Shown here: positions 37,891-53,574 of the stretch, one piece after another | Layout: every line of letters begins with the position of its first letter | How positions within the stretch are numbered: the first letter of the stretch is position 1 | IMG/VR virus record: IMGVR_UViG_3300042374_000500 | Location: 1-64,000 of that record | Reading direction: 5' to 3' (one strand) | Length of the DNA stretch: 64,000 nucleotides | Source of the DNA: a virus | Notes under the pieces: model-generated | The model's input: only the letters and a program-made list of their open reading frames with translations | Told to the model about the DNA's origin: nothing | Database searches by the model: none | Translations under genes and position numbers: made by a program

Positions 37891-40800
37891 TTGGCAATAC
37901 AGAATTTAATAACAGGTGAATTTCAGATAAGAAAATTAAATGGAGTTCTTGTAGCTAACAATGGTATCGTTGATGCAGTTGGTAATATTACATCTGGTAC
38001 GTCTGGTACAAGTGGTACAAGTGGTACAAGAGGTACTAGTGGTACTTCGGGTTTTGCTGGTACAAGTGCCATGATAGTTTATACATTTACAGCAATTCAA
38101 AATCAAACTACTTTTCTTGTTCCTAGTGGGTTTGTAAATAATATGATTGCTGTTTTTGTTAATGGCGTTAAATTATCACAATACGATTATATAACAGTAA
38201 ATGGTTTTAGTGTAGTTTTAAATAATCCTCTTGATGCGGGGGACATTGTAGAAATAGATAATTTTGTTGCTAATTATGTTTCTACTTCAGGAAGTTCGGG
38301 TACAGCTGGATCTTCAGGTACGTCTGGTACAACAGGTACTTCAGGTAGTTCTGGATCTTCAGGTACGTCTGGTACAACAGGTACTTCGGGTAGCTCTGGT
38401 ACTACAGGAACTGGCGGTACTTCAGGTACAACTGGTACTTCTGGTACTTCAGGCAGTTCTGGTTTTAGTGGAAATAGGTATTTTACTACATCTAATACTG
38501 TATTTACTTTAGGTAATTCTGGTACTTTGATTGTAGGGACAAATTTATCATTTAGTCCTGCACAATCAATAATTATTGTTTACGATAATACAAACTTCCA
38601 AGAGTGTGAAGTTATTTCATATAATTCAACAACTGGGCAATTGCAATTTGCAGAACCCAACAGAACAGTTGGTTCGGGTACTTATTCAAACTGGTCAGTT
38701 AACTTAGATGGCGCAACTGGAGCAGCAGGGACTTCAGGAAGTTCAGGAACATCTGGTTCTACAGGAACATCCGGTACAACTGGTACTTCCGGAACTTCTG
38801 GTACTTCTGGTACTTCCGGAACATCCGGAACTTCTGGTACAACTGGAACTTCTGGTACAACTGGCACTTCCGGAACATCTGGAACTTCAGGTAGTTCTGG
38901 TTCAAGTGCTACAAGCGGTACTTCTGGTACTTCTGGTACCTCTGGCACAACTGGTACATCAGGGACAAGTGGAACTTCAGGAACTTCAGGAACTTCAGGT
39001 ACTACTGGAACGTCAGGTACATCTGCAATAGATGGTACTAGCGGCACGTCAGGTACAACTGGAACATCAGGAACTAGTGGTACATCAGGAACAAGCGGAA
39101 CAACAGGTACAAGCGGTACGTCAGGTACTTCAGGGGCAAATGGTATGAATGGAGTTGCAGGAGGTCTTGTGTACTATCTAAATCAATCTTTAAATACAGA
39201 TACTCCGTTTGGCAGTCCAACATATAAGCAATGGTCGTCAAATCCAACGGGAGGCGCAGAGCAATCGGTAGCATTAAATAATGTACCCAACAACACAAGA
39301 ACTCTTATTGCTACTTATGCGACTGATTCAGGAGTACCTAATGTCACCACAATACCTTCAGGGTTATGGGCGTGGACAACACATTTTGACATAAACCATA
39401 ATTGTGATTTAGCGGTAGATGTTGAACTTTACAAATATACAACAGGCGGGGTATCAACACTTTTAGGTACTACTAACATAGATACTGAACCAGTATCGTC
39501 AAATACTATTAAAGAATTTTTTACTGATTTATTTTTAATATCACAATCTTTAAACGCTACCGATAGACTTTATTGCAAAATATATGTTCTGCATAGTCAT
39601 GGTGGGAATGCTGATATAAATTTTTATACTGAAGGAATAAGTAATTACTCTTTTGCACAAACAACATTCAATCCACCAAGTGGTACGTCTGGTACTTCTG
39701 GTACTTCAGGAATAGATGGAACTTCCGGATCTAGCGGTTCTTCAGGTACATCTAGTACATCTGGAACTTCTGGTACGACAGGTACATCTGGAACTTCAGG
39801 TGAAAATGGTACAAGCGGTAGTTCTGGAACTTCAGGTTCTAGCGGAACTACAGGTACTTCTGGTACTTCTGCAACTTCAGGTACAACCGGTACTTCTGGA
39901 ACTTCAGGTGAAAATGGCACAAGTGGCACATCTGGTACAACCGGTACGTCTGGAACTTCAGGAACTTCTGGATCTTCAGGGGTTACTGGTTCTTCAGGTA
40001 CAAGTGGAACTACAGGTACATCTGGTACAAGCGGAGCTACTGGTTCTACTGGTACAAGTGGTACATCTGGAGTCACTGGATCTAGTGGTACTTCTGGTAC
40101 AAGTGGCGCTAATGGTACAAGTGGCGTTAATGGTACAAGTGGAAGTTCGGGAAGTAGTGGAGTATCTCCATCTGTATCAGGGTTTTTACCTTTAACTGGT
40201 GGAACATTAAGTGGTACTCTTTATTCTACTTACAATACTGCTAGTGGTATAGCTAATAACGGTTTCAATGTTGCAAAAACCATAATTGGTAATTTACATA
40301 TACAAAACGGAGACGGTACTAATGGTAATAACAGGCAAGCAGCTTTAACATTTCAAGGGGGTAATGCAAGCGAGGCTCAAGCAGGCATTTATGTGTCTAA
40401 TAATAGTACTACAGGTACAGCTATGGGCTTTGCTACAACAGATTCATATGCAACAGGCCCACAATTATTTTTAACTGCTACTAATGCGGGTCAAGTAACT
40501 TTCCCAAGAGCTTTAGTTCAAGTAAATGGATATTTAAGAACAGCAGGGGCAACATCTAATACAGTGTTATTTAACAATTCAGGCTCTTCTGTTGATTTTG
40601 GTAATGTTTTAGGACAAGGAAGTACAGGTAGAAGTACATTTTTTAGAGGGGCTTCAGCTCTTGTTTCTGTATGGTGGGGTACTACTGATGGTAATGGTAA
40701 CAACATACCATATGCAGCAATAGATGCAACAGCTGGTGAGTTTAAGTTTTATAGAAATACAGGTGGAACTGGTGGTGGAACATGGACAAATATTATGACC

Positions 40801-42624
40801 ATGAACGCATCTGGTCTTACTATGGATTCGGGTAATTTTATAGGCAATCTTACAGGAAATGTTACAGGATCGGCTGGTTCTGTTGCATGGGGAAACGTAA
40901 CTAGCAAGCCTAGTCTTATTATGTATTATCAAGGGTTCACATTGAACGCTGATACAATGGATGGCAACTCTACCGGGTTTACGTATGCTGTAAATGCTCC
41001 ATATACAGGTCCTATCGCTAGGTTTAGTGAAACTGGGTATTCTTTACAATTAAATGCAGCATATAGTGGAGGAGGTAACCTTATTGCTTTTAGAACTAGA
41101 AATGGAGATGCTGGAGCATTTAATCCTTGGAGGGAGTTTATTACTTCTGGTAATATTGCTGGTCAATCAGTTGCTTATGCTACTTCTGCTGGTAGTGCTA
41201 GTACTGCAACCTCAGCAACTTCTGCAACATATTTAAATAGTAGTAATTATATTCAACAAACAGGTTCTACAGGTTCTTGGAACGCTGATTTCCAAAATAC
41301 GCCAGCCGGTACCGCAAGATATGGAGGAGATGTTGGAGCAAATGGGACTAATAATCCCGGAGGAAGTTGGTGGATTCAACAAAACTTTAGACATACTAAT
41401 GCTTCTAACTTTTGGGGTATACAAATAGCATGGGGATGGGAAGATAATGCTAATAGATTAGCTACAAGAAATGTATCTGGAGGTACTTTTGGAGGATGGG
41501 TTTATTATTTAAATAGTAATAATTTTACATTATATGCTCCTTCTTTGACTGGTAGTGGGGCAAGTGGTACATGGAATATAACTTCTGCTAATACAAATAG
41601 TATTTCAAGTGCAGTTGGTGGTGCTTATACATGGACGGGTATTCAATATTTTAGATCCAATAGAAATACAAGCTCAGATTCACCATCGCTACAAGCTTAC
41701 TCCGATAATGGAAGTGGTGCTATAATGGCTTTTCATAGAGGCGGATATTATGCAATAAATATGGGACTTGATTCCGATAACGTATTTAGAATTGGTGGAT
41801 GGAGTGCAGCTGCTAATAGATTACAATTAGATATGAGCGGCAATTTAACCATTGCTGGAACTGGAATTTTTGGTATCACTGGTGCTGCTGGTAGTTTAAC
41901 TTATAATGGTACTGCTGATAATATTTATAATAGCGGATTTTATAGAAACTATGGCGATACTGGGCTTTATAATGAATCTTATGGATGTATGTTTAGAAGA
42001 AATTCATCTTCAAGTCATGGATCATGGGAGGCATTTGGATATAATAAAAATGGGTATGCTGGAATAAACATAGTAGATCCTCAAGGATATTGGAATAATT
42101 CAATGTATGAAAATGGTAATGGAGGTTTATATCAAGAAAATGGGGCAGGGTGGCAATATTACTTTCAAAGGTCAGCCAATGACTGTTTAGGTCTTAGCGG
42201 TTCTGAAACATACGATTGGGTAAGAGCATGTACAAATGGTAAGCATAGAATTACAAATGATACTTGGTGTGATGCAATATCTTACGCTGTTTCATTTAAT
42301 CCTATATCAGATGCTAGACTAAAAGAAAATGTCGTAACTGTTGACAATGCTCTTGATAAAATATTACAATTAAGAGGTGTTTATTATAGTTGGATTATAG
42401 ATACAGAACAAAAAAAACATATTGGCGTTATCGCACAAGAAGTTCAAGAAGTTTGTCCTGAAGCTGTACTTTATCATGAAGAAACTGATACACTTACTGT
42501 AAGTTACAATGACTTATCTGGTGTCTTTATAGAAGGTTTTAAAGAATTAAATCAAAAGTTAATTGATGCTAATGCGAGAATTGAGATGCTAGAAACTAAA
42601 CTTAACCAATTATTAAACGCATAA
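37891..42624 (+). CDS. Tail fibre with collagen-like GTSG repeats and S74 chaperone
   Basis: A 1577-residue fibre. Four blocks of Gly-X-Y triplets with X,Y = Thr/Ser (residues ~35-60, ~131-195, ~277-415, ~597-760) alternate with globular domains. A domain at ~196-276 (RYFTTSNTVFTLGNSGTLIV) recurs in the fibre at 43407. The C-terminus is a peptidase S74 intramolecular chaperone: SDARLKENV near residue 1472, then IGVIAQEVQEVCPEA and a final coiled coil. It probably trimerises and self-cleaves before the conserved Ser. The start is TTG in the context ACATTGGCA. The Thr/Ser-rich triplets are candidate O-glycosylation sites. Confidence 0.85.
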   Translation: MAIQNLITGEFQIRKLNGVLVANNGIVDAVGNITSGTSGTSGTSGTRGTSGTSGFAGTSAMIVYTFTAIQNQTTFLVPSGFVNNMIAVFVNGVKLSQYDYITVNGFSVVLNNPLDAGDIVEIDNFVANYVSTSGSSGTAGSSGTSGTTGTSGSSGSSGTSGTTGTSGSSGTTGTGGTSGTTGTSGTSGSSGFSGNRYFTTSNTVFTLGNSGTLIVGTNLSFSPAQSIIIVYDNTNFQECEVISYNSTTGQLQFAEPNRTVGSGTYSNWSVNLDGATGAAGTSGSSGTSGSTGTSGTTGTSGTSGTSGTSGTSGTSGTTGTSGTTGTSGTSGTSGSSGSSATSGTSGTSGTSGTTGTSGTSGTSGTSGTSGTTGTSGTSAIDGTSGTSGTTGTSGTSGTSGTSGTTGTSGTSGTSGANGMNGVAGGLVYYLNQSLNTDTPFGSPTYKQWSSNPTGGAEQSVALNNVPNNTRTLIATYATDSGVPNVTTIPSGLWAWTTHFDINHNCDLAVDVELYKYTTGGVSTLLGTTNIDTEPVSSNTIKEFFTDLFLISQSLNATDRLYCKIYVLHSHGGNADINFYTEGISNYSFAQTTFNPPSGTSGTSGTSGIDGTSGSSGSSGTSSTSGTSGTTGTSGTSGENGTSGSSGTSGSSGTTGTSGTSATSGTTGTSGTSGENGTSGTSGTTGTSGTSGTSGSSGVTGSSGTSGTTGTSGTSGATGSTGTSGTSGVTGSSGTSGTSGANGTSGVNGTSGSSGSSGVSPSVSGFLPLTGGTLSGTLYSTYNTASGIANNGFNVAKTIIGNLHIQNGDGTNGNNRQAALTFQGGNASEAQAGIYVSNNSTTGTAMGFATTDSYATGPQLFLTATNAGQVTFPRALVQVNGYLRTAGATSNTVLFNNSGSSVDFGNVLGQGSTGRSTFFRGASALVSVWWGTTDGNGNNIPYAAIDATAGEFKFYRNTGGTGGGTWTNIMTMNASGLTMDSGNFIGNLTGNVTGSAGSVAWGNVTSKPSLIMYYQGFTLNADTMDGNSTGFTYAVNAPYTGPIARFSETGYSLQLNAAYSGGGNLIAFRTRNGDAGAFNPWREFITSGNIAGQSVAYATSAGSASTATSATSATYLNSSNYIQQTGSTGSWNADFQNTPAGTARYGGDVGANGTNNPGGSWWIQQNFRHTNASNFWGIQIAWGWEDNANRLATRNVSGGTFGGWVYYLNSNNFTLYAPSLTGSGASGTWNITSANTNSISSAVGGAYTWTGIQYFRSNRNTSSDSPSLQAYSDNGSGAIMAFHRGGYYAINMGLDSDNVFRIGGWSAAANRLQLDMSGNLTIAGTGIFGITGAAGSLTYNGTADNIYNSGFYRNYGDTGLYNESYGCMFRRNSSSSHGSWEAFGYNKNGYAGINIVDPQGYWNNSMYENGNGGLYQENGAGWQYYFQRSANDCLGLSGSETYDWVRACTNGKHRITNDTWCDAISYAVSFNPISDARLKENVVTVDNALDKILQLRGVYYSWIIDTEQKKHIGVIAQEVQEVCPEAVLYHEETDTLTVSYNDLSGVFIEGFKELNQKLIDANARIEMLETKLNQLLNA
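37996..40165 (+). repeat. Gly-Thr-Ser triplet repeats, fibre 1
   Basis: Nine-base-period DNA encodes GTS/GSS/GTT triplets in four blocks (about 37996-38070, 38286-38475, 38722-39140, 39679-40165). Codons vary, so the DNA is not an exact repeat. No proline occurs in the triplets, unlike animal collagen; thermal stability would have to come from other contacts or modification. Confidence 0.85.
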
Positions 42625-43406: not shown

Positions 43407-45680
43407 ATGAGCAAAAATACAATTTTAAGTGAATTACCTAATATTGATGGTATAATTAAAGGAAACTTAGATGCTAATTTTAGCACAGCAGTTCCTAATG
43501 TTGACTATCAATTGCCTATAAGTCTTACGACAAATGGTGTTAGTGGACCATCTACATTTAGTGGTAATGTCTTAAATGTGCCTATTTATAGCTCATCTTC
43601 TGGTACAGCAGGTAGTTCAGGTAGTTCGGGTAGTTCGGGGAGTTCTGGGACAACTGGTACGTCAGGCACAAGCGGTAGTACAGGAACTTCAGGAACAAGT
43701 GGCACATCTGGCACAAGCGGAACAAGTGGCACATCTGGCAGTTCAGGCACTACAGGTACAAGCGGAACATCTGGGACTAGCGGTACAAGCGGAACAAGTG
43801 GCAGTAGTGGAACAACAGGTACTAGTGGAACTTCAGGGTATTCTGGAGATAAGTATTTTACTACTTCAACAACTTCTTTTACTTTAGGTAATAGCGGTAC
43901 TATAACAGTACAGACAGCATTGGCATATACAATTGGTCAAACTATCCTTATTGTATATAATATTACAAACTATCAAGAATCAGTAGTTACAGCATATAAT
44001 CCTAGTACGGGATCTCTTTCATTTGGCGCTCCAGCAACCACAGTTGGTTCAGGTACTTATGCAGCATGGATTGTCAACTTAGCTGGTGCTAGCGGTGGTG
44101 ATGGTAGTTCAGGAACTTCAGGTTCTTCTGGTATTACTAGTACTTCTGGAACCACAGGAACATCAGGTTCTTCAGGTAGCTCAGGTTCTTCAGGCAGTTC
44201 AGGTTCTACAGGTAGTTCAGGTTCTTCAGGCAGTTCAGGTACTTCAGGAACTAATGGTACATCAGGATCGTCTGGCACCACAGGATCATCTGGCACATCA
44301 GGTACTAGAGGTACTAGCGGAACTAGCGGTACTAGCGGTACTAATGGAACTGGTGGCAGTTCGGGTGTTTCAGGTAGTTCAGGTACTTCGGGTACAACTG
44401 GTACTTCGGGTACTAGCGGTACTAATGGAACTGGTGGCAGTTCGGGTGTTTCAGGTAGTTCAGGTACTTCGGGTACAACTGGTACTTCGGGTACAACCGG
44501 TACTTCAGGCACTTCTGGAACGTCAGGTTCTTCGGGTTCTTCGGGTTCGTCAGGTTCGTCTGGAGTAAATGGTAATAATGGTTCTTCAGGTTCGTCTGGA
44601 GTAAATGGCGGAAATGGTTCTTCAGGCACTTCTGTTTCTGTATCAGGTACTACAAATTATATAACTAAATTTACATCAGCATCTACTATTGGTAATAGTA
44701 ATATTACATCAAATGGATCTGAAGTTGATATAGCAGGGGGGAATAATCCTTTAAGAGTTTTTGGAGTAGAGCCATATGTTAGTATTCATGCAATAGGAGC
44801 AACAAATTCTGCGGGTCTTAGGATTTATCCATCAGGCGGATTTGGTGCTTATATTGGCAATTATGCAACAGGGGCATTAGTTTTAGTATCTGCAAATGCA
44901 GAAGCGGCTTTTGTATATGGTGATGGTAATATTGTATCTAATGGAGGATGGTTTATTAATAATTCCACATTCAGAGGTTTGCATAATAGTGCGACTGCGA
45001 TGTATTTTGCATCAAAAGATTCAGGTTATTATGATATATCATCATCAGGAGTTTCAGTTTCTTCGTTGAGATTATTTACAGGAGGCAATCAAGCAAGTCT
45101 TAGAGGATATGTGTATGCAGACACTAATAATGATATAGGTTTTTTACATCATAATGGTGGTTGGAGTGTTAGAACTAATACAGCAGGTGTTACTTTATAT
45201 GGTGATTCTGGTTCAACTGGTACCTTTACTGCAACAAAATATAAATTTGGTAGTAATAATACTCTTTCTGGTAATGGATTAGTTGAAATTGTTGATATGG
45301 CAGAAGTTGGAATGGCAACACAAGCGGCTTCCTATAGATGGTATAATAGTACTGCTGCTACTATATTAATGTCCTTAAATTCAAGCGGAAATTTAACTGC
45401 GGGGGCATTTTTTGAAGGTTCAGATATTAGATTTAAAAATGTCATAGAAACCAATCCTCAGATAGATTTAACAAGTATAGACGTAATTAAATTCATTCGT
45501 ACAGATAATGAAAGTGGACAAGTAAGATATGGCTATTCAGCACAACAAGTACAAGAAATACTTCCAGATTTGGTTACTGAATCTGAAGAAAAGTTAAGTT
45601 TGAACTATATGGATGTTCACACATTAAAAATAGCTGCTTTAGAAAAACGCATTGCTGAATTAGAAGCTAAACTAAAATAA
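43407..45680 (+). CDS. Second tail fibre with GTSG repeats and S74 chaperone
   Basis: A 757-residue shorter relative of the first fibre. GTSG blocks cover residues ~64-146 and ~230-411, separated by the KYFTTSTTSFTLGNSGTITV domain (~150-229) that is shared with fibre 1. After a receptor-side beta domain comes the S74 signature SDIRFKNV (~671) with YGYSAQQVQEILPDLV and a C-terminal coiled coil (IAALEKRIAELEAKLK). Two fibres with the same assembly domain but different tips could bind two receptors or be alternatives. Confidence 0.83.
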   Translation: MSKNTILSELPNIDGIIKGNLDANFSTAVPNVDYQLPISLTTNGVSGPSTFSGNVLNVPIYSSSSGTAGSSGSSGSSGSSGTTGTSGTSGSTGTSGTSGTSGTSGTSGTSGSSGTTGTSGTSGTSGTSGTSGSSGTTGTSGTSGYSGDKYFTTSTTSFTLGNSGTITVQTALAYTIGQTILIVYNITNYQESVVTAYNPSTGSLSFGAPATTVGSGTYAAWIVNLAGASGGDGSSGTSGSSGITSTSGTTGTSGSSGSSGSSGSSGSTGSSGSSGSSGTSGTNGTSGSSGTTGSSGTSGTRGTSGTSGTSGTNGTGGSSGVSGSSGTSGTTGTSGTSGTNGTGGSSGVSGSSGTSGTTGTSGTTGTSGTSGTSGSSGSSGSSGSSGVNGNNGSSGSSGVNGGNGSSGTSVSVSGTTNYITKFTSASTIGNSNITSNGSEVDIAGGNNPLRVFGVEPYVSIHAIGATNSAGLRIYPSGGFGAYIGNYATGALVLVSANAEAAFVYGDGNIVSNGGWFINNSTFRGLHNSATAMYFASKDSGYYDISSSGVSVSSLRLFTGGNQASLRGYVYADTNNDIGFLHHNGGWSVRTNTAGVTLYGDSGSTGTFTATKYKFGSNNTLSGNGLVEIVDMAEVGMATQAASYRWYNSTAATILMSLNSSGNLTAGAFFEGSDIRFKNVIETNPQIDLTSIDVIKFIRTDNESGQVRYGYSAQQVQEILPDLVTESEEKLSLNYMDVHTLKIAALEKRIAELEAKLK

Positions 45681-45681
45681 T

Positions 45682-47019
45682 ATGGCATATAATGATTTGA
45701 GTCAAAATCAGACAATTAGTTTTAATAATTTACAAAGTGGTGTTAATCAAGGTGTATTTACAGCTAAAGCTGCTATACCAGTTAGTACTAAACAGATAAC
45801 AAAAACTGAAGCTAATACTTATGTAAATATAAATACATCACTTCCATCATATGCTGCCAAAGCATCAAATCAATTAGTAACTAAAGAAGATTTATCAGGA
45901 ATTACTAGTACTTCTCCATACACAATGTATGGTGTGGCAGGAACAGCTGCTTATAAATCTTTAGATGGAGGCAATACATTTACAGCATTATCAGGTCTTA
46001 CATCAGCTTACAACTGGATGGGGATAGCAGGAGATAGTACAGGAACATATATTGCAGTTGTTACTAATTCATTAAATCTTGTAGTTTATCTATCTAGTGA
46101 TGGTGGTTCTACATTCACACAAAAGTTAATAAGTGGGGTTTTTGGTGGCAACCTTTATCCGACAAGTGTAGCTATGTCTAATAATGGACAATATATAGGT
46201 ATAGCAGGTCTAACAAACACATTAAATGTAGGAGGTCTCAAAAAAGCTATGCTTGTAGCATCATCAGATTATGGTAGTTCATTTGGTACTATATATACAG
46301 ATTCTATGAATGTTAATATGTATCAAGACTATCCATTTAAAATATCAGTATCAGGCAATGGCCAATATATGACTGCTGTTTATTCCTATGAAGTAGATCC
46401 GGGAGGGATTAATAGGCCAAGACCTTGGTCATTTAGAATTTACTCAACTAACTATGGATCTACTTGGACAAGAAGTGGAGGTAGCGAGTTTTCAAGATTT
46501 TTTGATATTGCATTAGATGGTACAGGTCAAAATCAATTTTTAACAAGCGATTGGGCTAGACCGGGATTAGGTGGATCACAAGGTATAAAAGCATCTGTTA
46601 CAAATGATTTTGGTGTTAATTGGAATGAAAGATATTCAAATACTGTTGGACTTTCTCGGCCAAGACAGGTAGGATTTATCTCTGCCACTATATCAGATAA
46701 TGGCCAAGTTATGGTGGGATCTACAAACGAAACCACAAGTACACCATTTTACGATCCCTCTAATTTTTCACCTTTAGTTGTAGCATCATTTAATTCAGGC
46801 AGTACTTTTGCACAAAGTGGTGGATATAATAATGCTATAGAAATAGCTGGTGGTACAGCAGTCACTGGAGGTATTACAAATAACTATATTGCAATGATGT
46901 TAAACAACATAGGTCAGTTTAATTACAGTACAAATGGAGGATCTAGTTTTTTAGTCAGTACTACAACAGCTCGTGCTTGGAATCAAATATATAGAAAAGC
47001 ATTATTAAACACTCCATAG
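45682..47019 (+). CDS. BNR/Asp-box repeat protein
   Basis: A 445-residue protein with a helical N-terminal part (~1-70) and a beta-propeller built from BNR/Asp-box repeats: SLDGGNTF, SSDGGSTF, SSDYGSSF, STNYGSTW, TNDFGVNW, FNSGSTF and STNGGSSF. Such propellers occur in sialidases and in many non-catalytic adhesins; sialidase active-site residues cannot be assigned from the sequence. It follows the two fibres immediately, so a tip or host-glycan-binding role is likely. Confidence 0.75.
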   Translation: MAYNDLSQNQTISFNNLQSGVNQGVFTAKAAIPVSTKQITKTEANTYVNINTSLPSYAAKASNQLVTKEDLSGITSTSPYTMYGVAGTAAYKSLDGGNTFTALSGLTSAYNWMGIAGDSTGTYIAVVTNSLNLVVYLSSDGGSTFTQKLISGVFGGNLYPTSVAMSNNGQYIGIAGLTNTLNVGGLKKAMLVASSDYGSSFGTIYTDSMNVNMYQDYPFKISVSGNGQYMTAVYSYEVDPGGINRPRPWSFRIYSTNYGSTWTRSGGSEFSRFFDIALDGTGQNQFLTSDWARPGLGGSQGIKASVTNDFGVNWNERYSNTVGLSRPRQVGFISATISDNGQVMVGSTNETTSTPFYDPSNFSPLVVASFNSGSTFAQSGGYNNAIEIAGGTAVTGGITNNYIAMMLNNIGQFNYSTNGGSSFLVSTTTARAWNQIYRKALLNTP

Positions 47020-47422: not shown

Positions 47423-47450
47423 AGGCAGCTTAAATCGCTGCCTTTATTTT
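47423..47450. terminator. Bidirectional terminator between convergent genes
   Basis: AGGCAGC (47423-47429) pairs with GCTGCCT (47437-47443) around TTAAATC, followed rightward by TTATTTTTT and leftward by an A+T-rich stretch. The stop codon of the reverse-strand gene (47430-47432) lies in the loop, so the terminator is part of that gene's end. Confidence 0.85.
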
Positions 47451-50400
47451 TTCTATAACCATCTGAGCTGTTATTGATTTATGACATTCAAAGTGTTTGT
47501 CAGTGTCTTTATGTTTGCACCAATTCCAATCTCCCTTATCAAAGATAATCCCATTTTCATTCCAACAGCTATTACAAACATTGGTATTTGTTATTCTAAT
47601 GCAGTCTAATTGAAATTCGTGATCAGCGGAAGTGAAATTGCTTATCATTATTACTTTCTTTTTTAAAGCCCAAGCAAGCCAGCTTAACCCACTAGAAAGA
47701 CCAATAAAGAATTCACTATTTAATATTACATCAATCGTGTTTTCTATTGAAGTATCAGATATTTTAGTACAATTATCAAATGGATTGTCCTCTTTAGATA
47801 CGTTTATTACAGCATATCCTTCCTCGTGTAAATAATTGATTACCTCTTGCCAGCCTTCTCTAGTCCAAAACTTGCATCCAGAAGTTGAATTAGTGGCTAT
47901 AGTAATATATTTACCACTAAGCTTGCTTTTGTTTTCAATCTTCAAAATAGGTCTTATTTCTTTAAATTCAAGACCTAGTATATTTGTAGCTGCTTTCTGT
48001 AATGGAATAGTATTTGGAACTTCTGGTTCTTTATCACTATTATAAAACCATCCTAATCTATATAAAGCATAAATGTTATCTACAACTACACCCGGTTCTA
48101 CTAATTCCAATTCAGGATAGTCCAGTATTTTATTCCAAAAAGTGGACAATATAACCTTACATTGATGTAGTTTTTGAAACTCTAATGCATAAGGAACCCA
48201 AGCCAATGTATCTCCTAATGATTTACTTTCTAATACAATAAATACTCTTTTGCCATTTAAATGTAAATAATTTGCATATATCATCTGATTATTTTGCCAA
48301 ACCTTAGTTGTCCAATTGGTAAAATATGTTCTATTTAGCTTTATCCAATGATTTGATTTAACAAAGTTTTCATATTGGCATTTACCTTCCCCATCATAAA
48401 ATGCAACTTTAAATAAATCATCAACATTGCCTTTAATTTCTAAAAACGGATTATCAACAAAGTGTTGCGTGATAGATGCTTTTTGATTTTGAATAGGTAG
48501 TTCAATTATTTTTTTATAAGCATCCTCTTGTCTAAAAGCAAATATAGGGGTGGTATTGTCTGTAGGTACTTCGTAATTACATTCTAGGGTATTTAAATCA
48601 CTATCAATTGGCTGTAAATAATCGGTAAACATATTTCCATATTGAGGCAAATTTCTAGCTATAATAGGCAATCCGTAGCTAATGGCTTCCCTTAAAACTA
48701 AGGGGTTACATTCCCAAGTGGAATTAAACATAAAAATGTCAGCTGCGGTCATAAATTTATCAATATCATTTCTTTCTCCCCACACTTTAACATTTGGAGG
48801 CAAATCTTTCATTAATGGCTCCCAATAATCTTTAAAGTTCCCAGCTTGGTTCCCAACAAAATGAAAATCTATATTTGGATATTTTTTAGCAATTTCAATT
48901 CCTTCTCCTTGATTTTTACCAGATGTCCATAATCCAACATTTAAAACATTCTTTTTATGCATAGATAAGCCTAATTCATTTATTGCTTGTATATAATGAG
49001 CTTGATCAAATGGCTTTTGATTTATAGGGTATTCTATTGTAACAAATTTAGATACCATATTAGCAAAGGTTTGCTCGTGATATGGGCTACAGAATATATA
49101 TGAATCTGGGTGAAATATCTTTTCTTTGTCAGGATCAAAAGATACATCGTGGCAAGTTTCTACAATTCTATATTTTCTATTTGAATCATAAAGTCTTTTT
49201 ACCATTCCCATATCTAACCTTTCTGATGGCTCATCTATATGTATTAAATCAGGCCTCCATTTATCAATTACCTTGAATAGCTCCATCTTATCTTCATACA
49301 AAGTAGTAAAGTTTTCTCCTAGTAAACTTTTTATCTTATCTCTTTGAACCACAAAATCTAAGCTATAACATTGATATTCAACAACATATATTTCACAATC
49401 AGTATAATCATTAAGAGCTTCAATTCTTTTAAGCAAAAATTGAGGCATGCCACCTGTACTCAAATGAGGTGCTAGATATAGTATTCTCATTTTCTTTTCG
49501 CCACCAATAAATTCATTTATCTTGTTTATATCCTTTTCTCCATGATAAAATAATAAATCTTCTTTCTTTGCAGGTATTCTAAGCCAATTGCCATCTACTC
49601 TAGCTTCTCCCGTAAATTCTAAATTAGAATGTAAACCATTAACATACATACAAGGCAAGCCATTGTAAGCAAGTCTTTTATATAGCAATACATTCATTAT
49701 TGTTTCTTCGTGATATGGAGCATACCATTGATGATTTGCTACTATTTTAGGATGATTGCACATCCAATACCATTCATCTAAAAAGTCTATTGTTTTTTGC
49801 CCAGCAACATAATATCCCGTTTGTCTATATCTTTGCCTCACATATTGGTTTATGCCAAATAAATCACAAGCCGGATGCTCTAAGGTAGTGCTTAAATCAT
49901 CTCGGCTATCTGCCCCACCACGACCATTTATATGCAAATAGTCATACACCCCTTCTACAAAATAAGGATAGGTTGAATCATAGTCATAGAAGTCAAAAAT
50001 CCTATCTACATAAGCACTTGCAACAGAATCAGTATCAACATAAGCTATTGTTTTTGCATAATTAGTTAAAGCATCTTTTGTAATTTTAGGTCTTTCAATA
50101 AGAAGCTTGTAAATACTTTTGTCTAATCTATCTATAAAATCTTTTCTTTTAATGTAGCTTTTAACATCACAATCCCATTTTATTGTATTAACGTCTACTA
50201 CATTTACTTTTTTATCTGAATTAAGCATATAAACGTAAATAGGATAAGAGCTGTAATTTCTAATGGAACGACAACAAGCATCCACAAGATCAAAATAGGA
50301 ATCGTCAGCATAAAGGACGTAAGCTTTTTCATGTTTTTGGGGTTTATTTATGTAGTATCCGTAATATTCATTTCCATAGATTAGCTGCAAATCTGGGTAT

Positions 50401-50840
50401 CTATGCTCCATTACTTCCAATGTTAAATCTGGTTGTAAATGTGTTTCATGGATATTACCCTCATGTTCCCCTTGTTCCATCATATATGGGATTGCCACTA
50501 AACAGCCCTTATTTTGGCTTATAATTGAATCTATAAGGACTTGGGCATCTTCGGTAGCTATATGCTCTAGAACATCCCCTAAAATCACAAAATCATATGG
50601 AGTAATATCAAACCCAACAATGCTTTGCACAAATACATTCTTATACTTATCCCTTAAATTGTACTTTTCTACATAAGGTTCAAAGATTTCAACAGCATCC
50701 ATATCAAATCCATAGTCCTTTAGGAGCATTGAATATGTCCCTATCCCGGGGCCTGCGTCTAATATTTTAGCGTTTTTACTTAAATTTTCTACTAGATATT
50801 GCTTAATATCTTCCTTAAAATAGCTGAAACTGTGTGGCAT
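47430..50840 (-). CDS. Four-domain methyltransferase/glycosyltransferase with TibC-like O-heptosyltransferase end
   Basis: A 1136-residue fusion. Residues ~1-165 are a SAM-dependent methyltransferase (ILDAGPGIGTY 26-36, LGDVLEH 87-93). Residues ~170-440 look like a GT-A-type glycosyltransferase (YVDTDSVAS). Residues ~450-760 are a GT-B glycosyltransferase (MRILYLAPHLSTGG, then NVGLWTSGKNQGEG and NSTWECNPLVLREAISYGLP). The C-terminal ~270 residues match the autotransporter strand-loop-strand O-heptosyltransferase (TibC/BAHT) family: KSLGDTLAWVPYALEF, CKFWTREGWQEVINYL, FIGLSSGLSWLAWALKK and a Cys cluster C-x2-C-x15-C-x10-C at 1089-1119, like the TibC iron finger. TibC-type enzymes add heptose to Ser on proteins. 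A role in glycosylating fibres is inferred. Confidence 0.85.
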   Translation of the reverse strand: MPHSFSYFKEDIKQYLVENLSKNAKILDAGPGIGTYSMLLKDYGFDMDAVEIFEPYVEKYNLRDKYKNVFVQSIVGFDITPYDFVILGDVLEHIATEDAQVLIDSIISQNKGCLVAIPYMMEQGEHEGNIHETHLQPDLTLEVMEHRYPDLQLIYGNEYYGYYINKPQKHEKAYVLYADDSYFDLVDACCRSIRNYSSYPIYVYMLNSDKKVNVVDVNTIKWDCDVKSYIKRKDFIDRLDKSIYKLLIERPKITKDALTNYAKTIAYVDTDSVASAYVDRIFDFYDYDSTYPYFVEGVYDYLHINGRGGADSRDDLSTTLEHPACDLFGINQYVRQRYRQTGYYVAGQKTIDFLDEWYWMCNHPKIVANHQWYAPYHEETIMNVLLYKRLAYNGLPCMYVNGLHSNLEFTGEARVDGNWLRIPAKKEDLLFYHGEKDINKINEFIGGEKKMRILYLAPHLSTGGMPQFLLKRIEALNDYTDCEIYVVEYQCYSLDFVVQRDKIKSLLGENFTTLYEDKMELFKVIDKWRPDLIHIDEPSERLDMGMVKRLYDSNRKYRIVETCHDVSFDPDKEKIFHPDSYIFCSPYHEQTFANMVSKFVTIEYPINQKPFDQAHYIQAINELGLSMHKKNVLNVGLWTSGKNQGEGIEIAKKYPNIDFHFVGNQAGNFKDYWEPLMKDLPPNVKVWGERNDIDKFMTAADIFMFNSTWECNPLVLREAISYGLPIIARNLPQYGNMFTDYLQPIDSDLNTLECNYEVPTDNTTPIFAFRQEDAYKKIIELPIQNQKASITQHFVDNPFLEIKGNVDDLFKVAFYDGEGKCQYENFVKSNHWIKLNRTYFTNWTTKVWQNNQMIYANYLHLNGKRVFIVLESKSLGDTLAWVPYALEFQKLHQCKVILSTFWNKILDYPELELVEPGVVVDNIYALYRLGWFYNSDKEPEVPNTIPLQKAATNILGLEFKEIRPILKIENKSKLSGKYITIATNSTSGCKFWTREGWQEVINYLHEEGYAVINVSKEDNPFDNCTKISDTSIENTIDVILNSEFFIGLSSGLSWLAWALKKKVIMISNFTSADHEFQLDCIRITNTNVCNSCWNENGIIFDKGDWNWCKHKDTDKHFECHKSITAQMVIEKIKAAI

Positions 50841-50897: not shown

Positions 50898-51269
50898 ATG
50901 AAAATAGAAGTAAGTATCGGTGAAGTAGTAGATAAGTATACTATATTAACCATAAAAAAGCTATTCATTCATGACAATGAAAAGCTGGAAAACGTAGAAA
51001 AAGAATGGAAAATAATTAAATCTGCTCTATTAAAAAAATATCCTGAAACATTAACAGAGCCATTAACCCAAGAGCTTTATGATATAAATAAAAGGCTATG
51101 GAAAGTAGAGGATGATCTAAGGGATTGCGAGCATAAAAATTATTTTGGAGAAAAATTTGTGGAGTTGGCTAGGGAAGTTTACCAATTGAATGATGTGAGA
51201 GCCATTATAAAGAAGCAAATTAACCAAAAATATGGTTCTGAATTAATGGAAGAAAAATCTTATAAATAA
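50898..51269 (+). CDS. DUF6165 protein
   Basis: A 123-residue helical protein matching DUF6165: the start VSIGEVVDKYTILTIKK, the central LWKVEDDLRDCEH and REVYQLNDVRAIIKKQIN, and the end GSELMEEKSYK are the family pattern. DUF6165 genes often lie next to glycosyltransferases in bacterial surface-glycan clusters, and here it opens a cluster of sugar enzymes. Its biochemical role is unknown. Confidence 0.85.
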   Translation: MKIEVSIGEVVDKYTILTIKKLFIHDNEKLENVEKEWKIIKSALLKKYPETLTEPLTQELYDINKRLWKVEDDLRDCEHKNYFGEKFVELAREVYQLNDVRAIIKKQINQKYGSELMEEKSYK

Positions 51270-51270
51270 T

Positions 51271-52200
51271 ATGAATTTACGTTTTATTTGTGCGCAGCCA
51301 GCAAGTGATTATTACGTTTGGCAAGTTGAAACACTTTTGAATAATTTCATTAGTGTTGGTATTAATCCTAATAATGTTGATATAGTATGTTGGAAAGTAA
51401 ATGGAGTAATCCCAGAAAATTGGATAAAATTAGCTAATGGTTATCCAGCGAGATTTTTTTTCTATGATGACACTAGAGAAACAAGGCATTACATATCTTC
51501 CATAAGACCAAACATCTTAAAACAACATTTTCAAGCTTTCCCTGAATTAGAAAATGAAGCTATTTTGTATCATGATTGTGATATTGTATTTACTAAGCCA
51601 ATTGATTGGAACCAATTTTTACAAGACGACAAATGGTATGGATCTGATTGCAGATGGTACATAGGACACGACTACATTATAGGCAAAGGAGAAGATATAT
51701 TAGATAAAATGTGCGAAATAGTAGACATAGATAAGCAACTAGTAAAAGACAACGAACTAAATGCAATAGGCGCACAATATCTAATGAAGGGTATCAATGC
51801 AGAATATTGGGCAAGAGTAGAAAAAGATTGCGAAAGGCTATTTAAAGAAATAACCGATATAAACAATGAAAAGAAAGCCATAAATCCATCATATCATGAA
51901 TTACAGATATGGTGTAGCGATATGTGGTGTGTGCTTTGGAACGGATGGAAAATGGGCAAAGAAACTATATGCCACCCATCACTAGAATTTGCTTGGGCAA
52001 CAAGTACCGAAGCGGATTGGGATAGATTAAATATATTCCATAATGCGGGCGTTACAGATACAGCAAGTGGTTTATTTTATAAAGCATTGTATATAAATAC
52101 GTTGCCTTATAGTGAAACTTTGGATATAAAAGAAGGGACAGCAAGTAAAAAATATTGGGAAATAATACAAGAAACAGCTAAAAAATCAGTTTTATTATGA
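51271..52200 (+). CDS. GT-A-type glycosyltransferase
   Basis: A 309-residue protein with the nucleotide-sugar-binding DxD motif in ILYHDCDIVFTKP (Asp102-Cys-Asp104) and an IGAQYLMKGINAEYW helix, as in GT-A-fold transferases. The donor and acceptor cannot be read from the sequence. It overlaps the following methyltransferase by 4 nt (ATGA), which suggests the two products act together. Confidence 0.78.
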   Translation: MNLRFICAQPASDYYVWQVETLLNNFISVGINPNNVDIVCWKVNGVIPENWIKLANGYPARFFFYDDTRETRHYISSIRPNILKQHFQAFPELENEAILYHDCDIVFTKPIDWNQFLQDDKWYGSDCRWYIGHDYIIGKGEDILDKMCEIVDIDKQLVKDNELNAIGAQYLMKGINAEYWARVEKDCERLFKEITDINNEKKAINPSYHELQIWCSDMWCVLWNGWKMGKETICHPSLEFAWATSTEADWDRLNIFHNAGVTDTASGLFYKALYINTLPYSETLDIKEGTASKKYWEIIQETAKKSVLL

Positions 52201-52709
52201 CAACAAAAATAGTAGAGTCAGAAAATCCACTTGAACATTGGAACGATATTCAAAGCGTGGAAGGCAAGGTGGTATTGGATTTAGGGTGTGGATGGTTATT
52301 CCAGCCATTTGAATCAACTCCTCAATATTTTATAAGTAGGGGGGCTAAAAAAATAATTGGTGTAGATGCAGCATGCGGAGAAATTGAAAAGTTAAATCAA
52401 ACTTTTCTTGACCACACTTTTATTTGCAAAACAATTTTAGAATTTGATGATTTAGCTAACTTAATTATAGATCATAAGCCACAATTAATTAAAATGGATA
52501 TTGAAGGTTATGAGCATCATATGAAAAATATTACAGCAGAACAATTTGAATCAGTAGAAGAAATTGCCGTTGAATATCACAATCCAGAGTGTAAAAAAAT
52601 ATTAGAAGAAAAATTAACTGAACTAGGTTTTGATATATTTGCTACCAATCAATTTGGATGGTTTTGTACTGATATAAATGTAATGGGAATAATGCACGCA
52701 AAAAGATAA
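52197..52709 (+). CDS. FkbM-like methyltransferase
   Basis: A 170-residue SAM-dependent methyltransferase with motif I VVLDLGCG (25-32), motif II-like VDAACGEIE, and the FkbM signature IKMDIEGYEHH (~98-108). FkbM enzymes O-methylate sugars in surface glycans and antibiotics. It follows the GT-A gene and is followed after 1 nt by another probable glycosyltransferase. Methylated sugar on the phage glycan is an inference. Confidence 0.8.
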   Translation: MTTKIVESENPLEHWNDIQSVEGKVVLDLGCGWLFQPFESTPQYFISRGAKKIIGVDAACGEIEKLNQTFLDHTFICKTILEFDDLANLIIDHKPQLIKMDIEGYEHHMKNITAEQFESVEEIAVEYHNPECKKILEEKLTELGFDIFATNQFGWFCTDINVMGIMHAKR

Positions 52710-52710
52710 A

Positions 52711-53574
52711 ATGAAAATAAAAAAAGCTACATACGGAGGTGAGGATTGCAAAGATATTCTACAAAATAGAGTGTTGGCTAATAAATTAGTCATAAGAGTA
52801 AATAATGATATAATTGGTGATCCTGCTGTCGGGCAAGTAAAATATTTAGAAATTGAATTTGAAGATGGTTTTACTGCTACAGTAAGAGAAGGTGATACTT
52901 TTGTTTATCCTAAATCAAATAACCGGAAATTAGGTATATTTTATTCTAATAACAACAACCATAAAATATGGGACTCAATATATAAGTCTTTAGATACAAT
53001 AAAAGATGCTAGCGATGGAGTAGCTGACATAGTTATTTGTACATGGGAGCATATGCCAAATGTTCCATTTCAGCAATTAAATAGCTGGTACAAAAGCCAA
53101 TCTCATCTTAATCAACTTCTTCAAATTATGCAATGTCTATATACGGCAAAGACAATGGGAGAATATGACTACGTTTCTTTTCTAGAGCATGATGTTATGT
53201 ACCCAAAAGGCTATTTTGATTACCCAGATTTTGATCATGGCGATATTTTAACTAATATGAATTATGGAGGCGTTTGCATAGAAGGATGGCAAAAAAGAGG
53301 TCAAGACGATGAACCTTTCCACCAAATGACTATGAGATTAAATGATGCTATTCAGCATTGTTTGAGCATTTTACCAAATGCATTGGTTACCAATAGCGGG
53401 TTAATAGAATCTCAAACCTTTACAAGAAAGAAATGGCATTGTGAAAATGAAGCCATTCATATTAATCATGGAGTACATTTTACATCACATAATAGTATTT
53501 ACAAGAAAGATAATTTAATTCAAAATCACCCATATTGGGGCGAACATGATAAATATAAAAATTTATTTATATGA
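52711..53574 (+). CDS. DUF3395-like plus glycosyltransferase-like protein
   Basis: A 287-residue two-domain protein. Residues ~1-70 (KIKKATYGGEDCKDI, NKLVIRVNNDIIGDP, GQVKYLEIEFEDGFTA) have the pattern of the DUF3395 beta domain, known from several glycan-linked proteins. The rest contains ADIVICTWEHMP, FLEHDVMYP (acidic metal-binding motif) and a HINHGVHFTSH end, resembling GT-A-like enzymes. It probably forms part of the same glycan pathway. Its stop overlaps the zinc-protein start (ATGA). Confidence 0.7.
   Translation: MKIKKATYGGEDCKDILQNRVLANKLVIRVNNDIIGDPAVGQVKYLEIEFEDGFTATVREGDTFVYPKSNNRKLGIFYSNNNNHKIWDSIYKSLDTIKDASDGVADIVICTWEHMPNVPFQQLNSWYKSQSHLNQLLQIMQCLYTAKTMGEYDYVSFLEHDVMYPKGYFDYPDFDHGDILTNMNYGGVCIEGWQKRGQDDEPFHQMTMRLNDAIQHCLSILPNALVTNSGLIESQTFTRKKWHCENEAIHINHGVHFTSHNSIYKKDNLIQNHPYWGEHDKYKNLFI

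What the first reader, a model, noticed from the sequence alone, without database searches (positions are those of the whole stretch)
47430..50840. 1136-residue glycan-modifying fusion ending in a TibC-like protein O-heptosyltransferase
Seen: a methyltransferase (ILDAGPGIGTY, LGDVLEH), a GT-A-like region, a GT-B glycosyltransferase and a C-terminal domain with GDTLAWVPYALEF, SSGLSWLAWALKK and a C-x2-C-x15-C-x10-C cluster at residues 1089-1119. Known: this C-terminal pattern belongs to the autotransporter O-heptosyltransferase (TibC/BAHT) family, which adds heptose to Ser residues of secreted proteins and has an iron finger. Inferred: a phage protein that builds and attaches a sugar to protein. 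Such a four-part fusion in a phage looks unusual.
Basis: partly seen in the sequence, partly recalled or inferred. Interest (0 to 1): 0.8.

Follow-up and report, generated by a model that had tools for sequence, protein, structure and literature searches.

The report
Phage sugar-attaching enzyme for fibre collagen
This phage gene encodes a four-part enzyme whose end is a real relative of the bacterial protein heptosyltransferase TibC, and the company it keeps in phages and bacteria suggests that it decorates the Gly-Thr-Ser collagen-like repeats of the phage's own tail fibres with a small capped sugar chain.

Summary
In detail: window 47430-50840 (-) is one 1136-aa ORF, methyltransferase / GT-A / GT4 / TibC-like domain. 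The last domain passes the curated TibC/Aah model (248 bits, cut-off 200; GT9 34.5) and superposes on TibC (Z 38.5). Catalytic Asp, donor Thr and Lys and four iron-finger Cys are invariant in 46 distinct phage sequences. Two TibC features are absent: the dodecamer-closing thumb, and adenine-contacting Arg286 (Thr in 43).

The fusion is common in uncultured phages, with modules added, lost or split. TibC-like domains form two branches. TibC's sits beside autotransporters. The other holds all phage copies; 15 of its 18 loci from cellular collections have Ser/Thr-rich Gly-X-Y repeats nearby, against 0 of 61 in TibC's branch. In phages, 33 of 38 enzyme-bearing records carry Gly-Thr-Ser repeats, and 15 of 50 repeat-selected contigs encode the enzyme (controls 0 of 49 and 0 of 46). 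The window has two such repeat genes close by.

Best reading: a tail-fibre O-glycosyltransferase acting on collagen-like Gly-Thr-Ser repeats. Acceptor, sugar and order of steps are inferred. New variant of a known kind.

The parts
47430..50840 (-). 1136-aa four-domain glycan enzyme gene
50346..50840 (-). residues 1-165: SAM methyltransferase domain (PF13489, ILDAGPGIGTY), proposed cap O-methylation
   Evidence: 32.3 bits, cut-off 27; separate or missing in relatives
49491..50345 (-). residues 166-450: GT-A glycosyltransferase of GT6/GT8-like fold, DxD in YVDTDS
48483..49490 (-). residues 451-786: GT-B (GT4) glycosyltransferase with an E-x7-E motif (ECNPLVLRE)
   Evidence: PF00534; HepE and other GT4 enzymes, Z up to 28
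47433..48482 (-). residues 787-1136: TibC/BAHT-type O-glycosyltransferase domain, including the N-terminal beta-barrel
   Evidence: TIGR04414, 248 bits; 8.7e-43; Z 38.5, rmsd 2.1, 345 residues
48210..48212 (-). Asp877 = TibC catalytic base Asp110
   Evidence: D in all phage rows; 93/95 bacterial rows
47736..47738 (-). Thr1035 at the place of TibC Arg286 (adenine contact)
   Evidence: T in 43 of 46 distinct phage sequences; R in 83/95 bacterial rows
47484..47576 (-). iron-finger motif, Cys1089/1092/1108/1119
   Evidence: all phage rows; 95/95 bacterial rows
43407..45680 (+). 757-aa collagen-like tail fibre, 77 Gly-X-Y triplets mostly Gly-Thr/Ser-Ser; proposed acceptor
   Evidence: PF01391, E 2e-32; tail-fibre PHROGs
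37891..42624 (+). 1577-aa protein with 128 Gly-X-Y triplets; second proposed acceptor
50898..51269 (+). DUF6165 protein next to the enzyme; role unknown
   Evidence: PF19662, 46.7 bits
51271..52200 (+). phrog_4417 protein; DCD motif suggests a GT-A glycosyltransferase (inference)
   Evidence: 7.7e-66, no function given; sequence
52197..52709 (+). FkbM-like methyltransferase (weak)
   Evidence: phrog_8156 methyltransferase, 2.4e-4
52711..53574 (+). 287-aa protein, perhaps another GT-A enzyme (EHDVMYP motif, inference only)
   Evidence: no family match

Best explanation
A phage-encoded protein O-glycosylation machine. The C-terminal BAHT-type domain transfers a first sugar from a nucleotide-activated donor (heptose by homology) to Ser (or Thr) of the phage's own collagen-like (Gly-Thr/Ser-Ser)n tail-fibre repeats in the host cytoplasm, before the fibre trimerises. 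The fused GT4 and GT-A domains extend it and the N-terminal methyltransferase caps it, so the glycan is built from the C-terminal domain (first sugar) towards the N-terminal one (cap). Shown by computation: the domain identities, the conserved catalytic and Fe-binding residues, and the association with Ser/Thr-rich Gly-X-Y repeats in phages and separately in bacteria. Inferred: the acceptor residue, the sugar, the order of steps and the benefit (a stiffer, protease-resistant or differently adsorbing fibre). Rough odds: protein O-glycosyltransferase 0.85; collagen-like repeats as acceptor 0.7; heptose as first sugar 0.55; C-to-N order of steps 0.5.
For: Family: TIGR04414 over the equivalog cut-off, TibC by sequence and structure; invariant Asp110, Thr226, Lys230 and 4 Cys equivalents. 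Acceptor: the tree splits TibC-like domains into TibC's branch and a second one holding all 47 phage rows and 18 rows from cellular collections. Gly-X-Y runs of 7 or more triplets, mostly 0.6-1.0 Ser/Thr at X and Y, lie within 8 kb in 15/18 second-branch loci and 0/61 TibC-branch loci (Fisher 1.5e-13), 13 of the 15 within 1 kb. Within Methylococcales, which occur in both branches, 4 of 5 second-branch loci and 0 of 5 TibC-branch loci have them. The repeat proteins look exported (signal peptides, lipoboxes), while tested TibC-branch neighbours carry AIDA repeats and autotransporter domains. In phages, 33/38 enzyme-bearing records carry Gly-Thr-Ser repeat DNA, reversed-pattern control 0; 15/50 contigs picked by that repeat encode TIGR04414, against 0/49 picked by charged Gly-Pro-Lys-Gly-Asp collagen repeats and 0/46 picked by an arbitrary 15-mer. 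In 31 relatives and the window the nearby repeats are 80-83% Ser/Thr at X and Y. Order of steps: the BAHT part is C-terminal in the fusions examined and usually follows GT4 directly, while the N-terminal modules are the ones lost, split off or swapped.
Against: No chemistry was tested. Arg286, whose replacement by Ala abolished or largely diminished TibC activity (PMC4358343), is Thr. The hairpin thumb needed for the active TibC dodecamer is absent, so the oligomer and perhaps processivity differ. The gene often runs against the late tail genes (39 of 59 loci opposite to both neighbours), so co-expression with the fibre is not shown. In some large phages repeats and enzyme lie 40 kb or more apart. 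Both may be enriched in the same aquatic phages: the controls were not matched for habitat, and the loci are not phylogenetically independent, so the p-values are optimistic.
Confidence: 0.62

Rival explanations
1. It remodels the host's LPS or capsule (serotype conversion or superinfection exclusion), with the last domain as an LPS heptosyltransferase.
For: Weak GT9 similarity (34.5 bits); glycosyltransferases beside tail fibres of marine phages have been read this way (PMC7029224).
Against: TibC/Aah model 248 bits over cut-off, LPS heptosyltransferase I 23.8 bits against a cut-off of 185; beta-barrel and iron-finger Cys kept; second-branch cellular copies sit beside repeat proteins that look exported.
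Confidence: 0.12
2. It glycosylates a protein other than the collagen-like repeats: another virion protein, or a host surface adhesin.
For: BAHT enzymes are protein glycosyltransferases (PMC4358343); five of 38 enzyme-bearing records show no Gly-Thr-Ser pattern, though records may be fragments; other virion genes lie near too.
Against: Repeat association in both phages and cellular loci with clean controls.
Confidence: 0.2
3. The BAHT-type domain transfers a sugar other than heptose, or uses a nucleotide other than ADP, with the same fibre acceptor (compatible with the main reading except for the sugar).
For: Arg286 replaced by Thr in 43 of 46 phage sequences; no rfaE domain II in the window phage; a strong rfaE domain I match in only 15/40 Flavobacteriales, the order of the nearest named phages' hosts.
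Against: Thr226, Lys230 and Trp305, the phosphate and heptose contacts, are kept in nearly all.
Confidence: 0.3

Closest known systems
TibC / Aah autotransporter heptosyltransferases (BAHT, TIGR04414; PDB 4rap, 4rb4; PMC4358343)
   Same: Fold including beta-barrel, catalytic Asp, Thr226/Lys230/Trp305 equivalents, four-Cys iron finger with Phe368, curated model over cut-off.
   Different: No hairpin thumb, Arg286 replaced by Thr, Ser at position 300 (as in Aah); fused to GT4, GT-A and methyltransferase; separate branch of the tree; neighbours are collagen-like repeats, not autotransporters.
Glycosylated bacterial collagen-like proteins (Bacillus BclA; C. difficile BclA1 and BclA3 with SgtA; PMC8968730, PMC7157674)
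   Same: Collagen-like repeat proteins reported as glycosylated.
   Different: Those are spore proteins; repeats here are Gly-Thr/Ser-Ser and the proposed transferase is TibC-like.
Virion glycosylation in mycobacteriophages (Freeman 2023, as cited in PMC12619734)
   Same: Phages with glycans on their own virion proteins.
   Different: Reported on capsid and tail-tube C-termini; no TibC-like enzyme or collagen-like repeat named in the passage read.
Microcystis phage Mel-JY01 protein WWT39291, deposited as 'methyltransferase FkbM'
   Same: 1226-aa fusion ending in a TIGR04414 domain (317 bits).
   Different: Different module order (GT4 first, methyltransferase region in the middle) and a cyanobacterial host.

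Membership tests
BAHT (TibC/Aah, TIGR04414) | Match to the curated equivalog model over its cut-off | tested here: met
   248.3 bits against 200; 249.8
BAHT (TibC/Aah, TIGR04414) | TibC fold with N-terminal beta-barrel and two-lobed catalytic domain | tested here: met
   model 337-686 on TibC 21-387, Z 38.5, rmsd 2.1, 345 aligned
BAHT (TibC/Aah, TIGR04414) | Catalytic base Asp110 and donor contacts Thr226, Lys230, Trp305 | tested here: met
   all present in the window; invariant in phage rows except one Trp305
BAHT (TibC/Aah, TIGR04414) | Adenine contact Arg286 | tested here: not met
   Thr in the window and in 43 of 46 distinct phage sequences; Arg in 83/95 bacterial rows
BAHT (TibC/Aah, TIGR04414) | Four-Cys iron finger | tested here: met
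   4 Cys in all phage rows and 95/95 bacterial rows; iron itself not testable
BAHT (TibC/Aah, TIGR04414) | Hairpin thumb (F265, V266) that closes the dodecamer | tested here: not met
   loop deleted in the window and nearly all phage rows; L004, L057 and L059 keep a shorter, different loop; also absent in several second-branch bacteria
BAHT (TibC/Aah, TIGR04414) | Partner autotransporter gene next to it | tested here: not met
   collagen-like fibre instead; of six large TibC-branch neighbours scanned, four match AIDA repeats over cut-off
BAHT (TibC/Aah, TIGR04414) | Transfer of heptose from ADP-heptose to Ser | not testable with these tools
   needs biochemistry
GT9 LPS heptosyltransferase | Match to the curated LPS heptosyltransferase I model over cut-off | tested here: not met
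   TIGR02193 23.8 bits, cut-off 185.3

The most novel reading that the evidence does not exclude
A second branch of the TibC family is a collagen-repeat O-glycosyltransferase shared by bacteria and phages; in phages it has become the anchor of single-chain assembly lines whose module order mirrors the glycan (C-terminus first sugar, N-terminus cap), turning tail fibres into glycosylated collagen.
Probability: 0.45. Interest if true: 0.8.

Novelty: new variant of a known kind. Interest (0 to 1): 0.62.

Why it matters
If true, it adds a new acceptor class (collagen-like Gly-Ser/Thr repeats) to a protein glycosyltransferase family known for autotransporters, gives a reason why many uncultured phages carry Gly-Thr-Ser fibre repeats together with multi-domain glycosyltransferases, and makes phage fibre glycosylation directly testable in a phage grown on a named host (Mel-JY01) and in bacterial pairs such as Methylobacter. 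The literature searches here found no paper linking a TibC-like enzyme with phages or collagen-like proteins (open-access library only).

Tried and rejected
GT9/LPS heptosyltransferase for the last domain: rejected by score. One-off fusion: rejected, many relatives. Phage-borne ADP-heptose supply: rfaE domain II not found in 31 of 33 viral records nor in Mel-JY01, sub-cut-off matches in two records only; records may be fragments. I guessed that the ~280-aa gene upstream of second-branch BAHT genes was a flagellin; Pfam showed instead collagen-like, DUF6502, GT4, beta-propeller or weak methyltransferase. The reversed ORF 44057-44629 (-) is the antisense of the Gly-Thr-Ser repeat, not a gene. 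The methyltransferase domain was not folded; the sugar and nucleotide specificity of the GT-A and GT4 domains could not be read from their fold matches.

Full report
What is there. The ORF at 47430-50840 (-) is real and 1136 aa long; the window is most of a 66,305-bp virus record. Its large terminase is closest, at 28-29% identity, to Flavobacterium, Cellulophaga, Tenacibaculum and Maribacter phages, so a Bacteroidota host is likely but not shown. Domains: methyltransferase 1-165 (PF13489), GT-A 166-450, GT4 451-786 (PF00534) and a TibC-like domain 787-1136. The GT-A part, which no sequence model caught, folds with confidence (pLDDT 92) and matches GT6/GT8 transferases with an invariant DxD.

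The last domain. TIGR04414 scores 248.3 bits against a cut-off of 200, GT9 only 34.5. The model superposes on TibC over 345 residues at 2.1 A, Z 38.5, beta-barrel included. I compared it with the residues named in PMC4358343. One search counts 47 phage rows, but one of them (L068) is the window's own locus again, so there are 46 distinct sequences. Asp110, Thr226, Lys230, Phe368 and the four Cys are invariant, Trp305 is kept in all but one, Arg286 is Thr in 43 and Val in 3, and the thumb hairpin is missing or, in three rows, short and different. Position 300 is Ser in most, as in Aah, which takes both ADP-heptose epimers. So the chemistry centre is kept, the TibC oligomer probably is not, and the donor nucleotide is open.

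How common. A scan of viral contigs gave 67 loci. Architectures vary: all four parts in one ORF (18 loci, one with an extra domain); split near residue 450; methyltransferase missing, separate, or joined by an FkbM type; a pyruvyl transferase inserted (L047, L049); GT4 plus BAHT alone (L067); BAHT alone (L057, L059). In deposited phage records only Mel-JY01 and three metagenomic huge-phage assemblies hold the domain.

Acceptor. The first hint was the fibre gene nearby with 77 Gly-X-Y triplets. In 31 relatives and the window such repeats lie nearby with 80-83% Ser/Thr at X and Y. Tests: 33 of 38 enzyme-bearing records carry the Gly-Thr-Ser pattern, reversed control 0. Starting from the repeat instead, 15 of 50 contigs encode the enzyme, against 0 of 49 with charged collagen repeats and 0 of 46 arbitrary contigs; Fisher 1.8e-5 and 2.1e-5. 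One of the 15 (L175) is a record already in the first set. In the genome collection the tree (quick method, midpoint root) puts all phage rows in a branch apart from TibC, with 18 rows from cellular records; 15 of those 18 loci have Gly-X-Y runs nearby, 0 of 61 in TibC's branch. Of six large neighbours scanned in TibC's branch, four match AIDA repeats over cut-off, two of these with an autotransporter domain. The second-branch repeat proteins include apparent lipoproteins and secreted proteins directly beside the enzyme. Three of the 18 (L143, with an S74 fibre; L074; L084) may be phage contigs in bins.

Mechanism. Shown by computation: domains, residues, associations. Inferred: that the repeats are the acceptor, that Ser is modified, that heptose is first, and that GT4, GT-A and methyltransferase act in that order. 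The gene often points against its neighbours (39 of 59 loci), which leaves timing of expression open. Donor supply must come from the host: no rfaE domain II in the window phage, and a strong rfaE domain I match in 15 of 40 Flavobacteriales.

Novelty. TibC-type enzymes, glycosylated bacterial collagens and glycosylated virions are each known; their combination was not found in the papers searched (open-access library only). Scored as a new variant of a known kind: a BAHT-type domain by model, fold and active site, but failing two BAHT features (Arg286, thumb) and lacking an autotransporter partner.

Noticed in passing
window 45682-47019 (+): 445-aa protein without family match shows about seven Asp-box-like repeats (SSDGGSTF, STNYGSTW and similar), suggesting a beta-propeller, perhaps a receptor-binding tip, between the fibre and the enzyme gene.
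   Followed up: no
window 50898-53574 (+): A run of DUF6165, phrog_4417 (DCD motif), FkbM-like methyltransferase and a 287-aa unknown directly beside the enzyme: perhaps a small glycan gene island.
   Followed up: partly
L148:4750-8430 (PP395634.1): Mel-JY01 WWT39291 is deposited as 'methyltransferase FkbM' but ends in a TibC-like domain over the curated cut-off.
   Followed up: yes
L047:3430-7848, L049:7968-11909: Relatives with a polysaccharide pyruvyl transferase domain inserted between the GT-A and GT4 parts.
   Followed up: partly
L070, L071, L072, L076, L077, L079: Small apparent bacterial lipoproteins made largely of Gly-Ser/Thr-Ser repeats, several with acidic tails, sit next to second-branch BAHT genes in Gammaproteobacteria and Polaromonas MAGs.
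   Followed up: partly
L074, L084, L143: Contigs binned as Flavobacteriales, Chloroflexi and an unnamed bacterium carry phage-like fibre or glycosyltransferase fusions and may be phage.
   Followed up: no
window 44057-44629 (-): 190-aa ORF rich in Pro, Glu and Val is the antisense of the Gly-Thr-Ser repeat, an artefact.
   Followed up: yes
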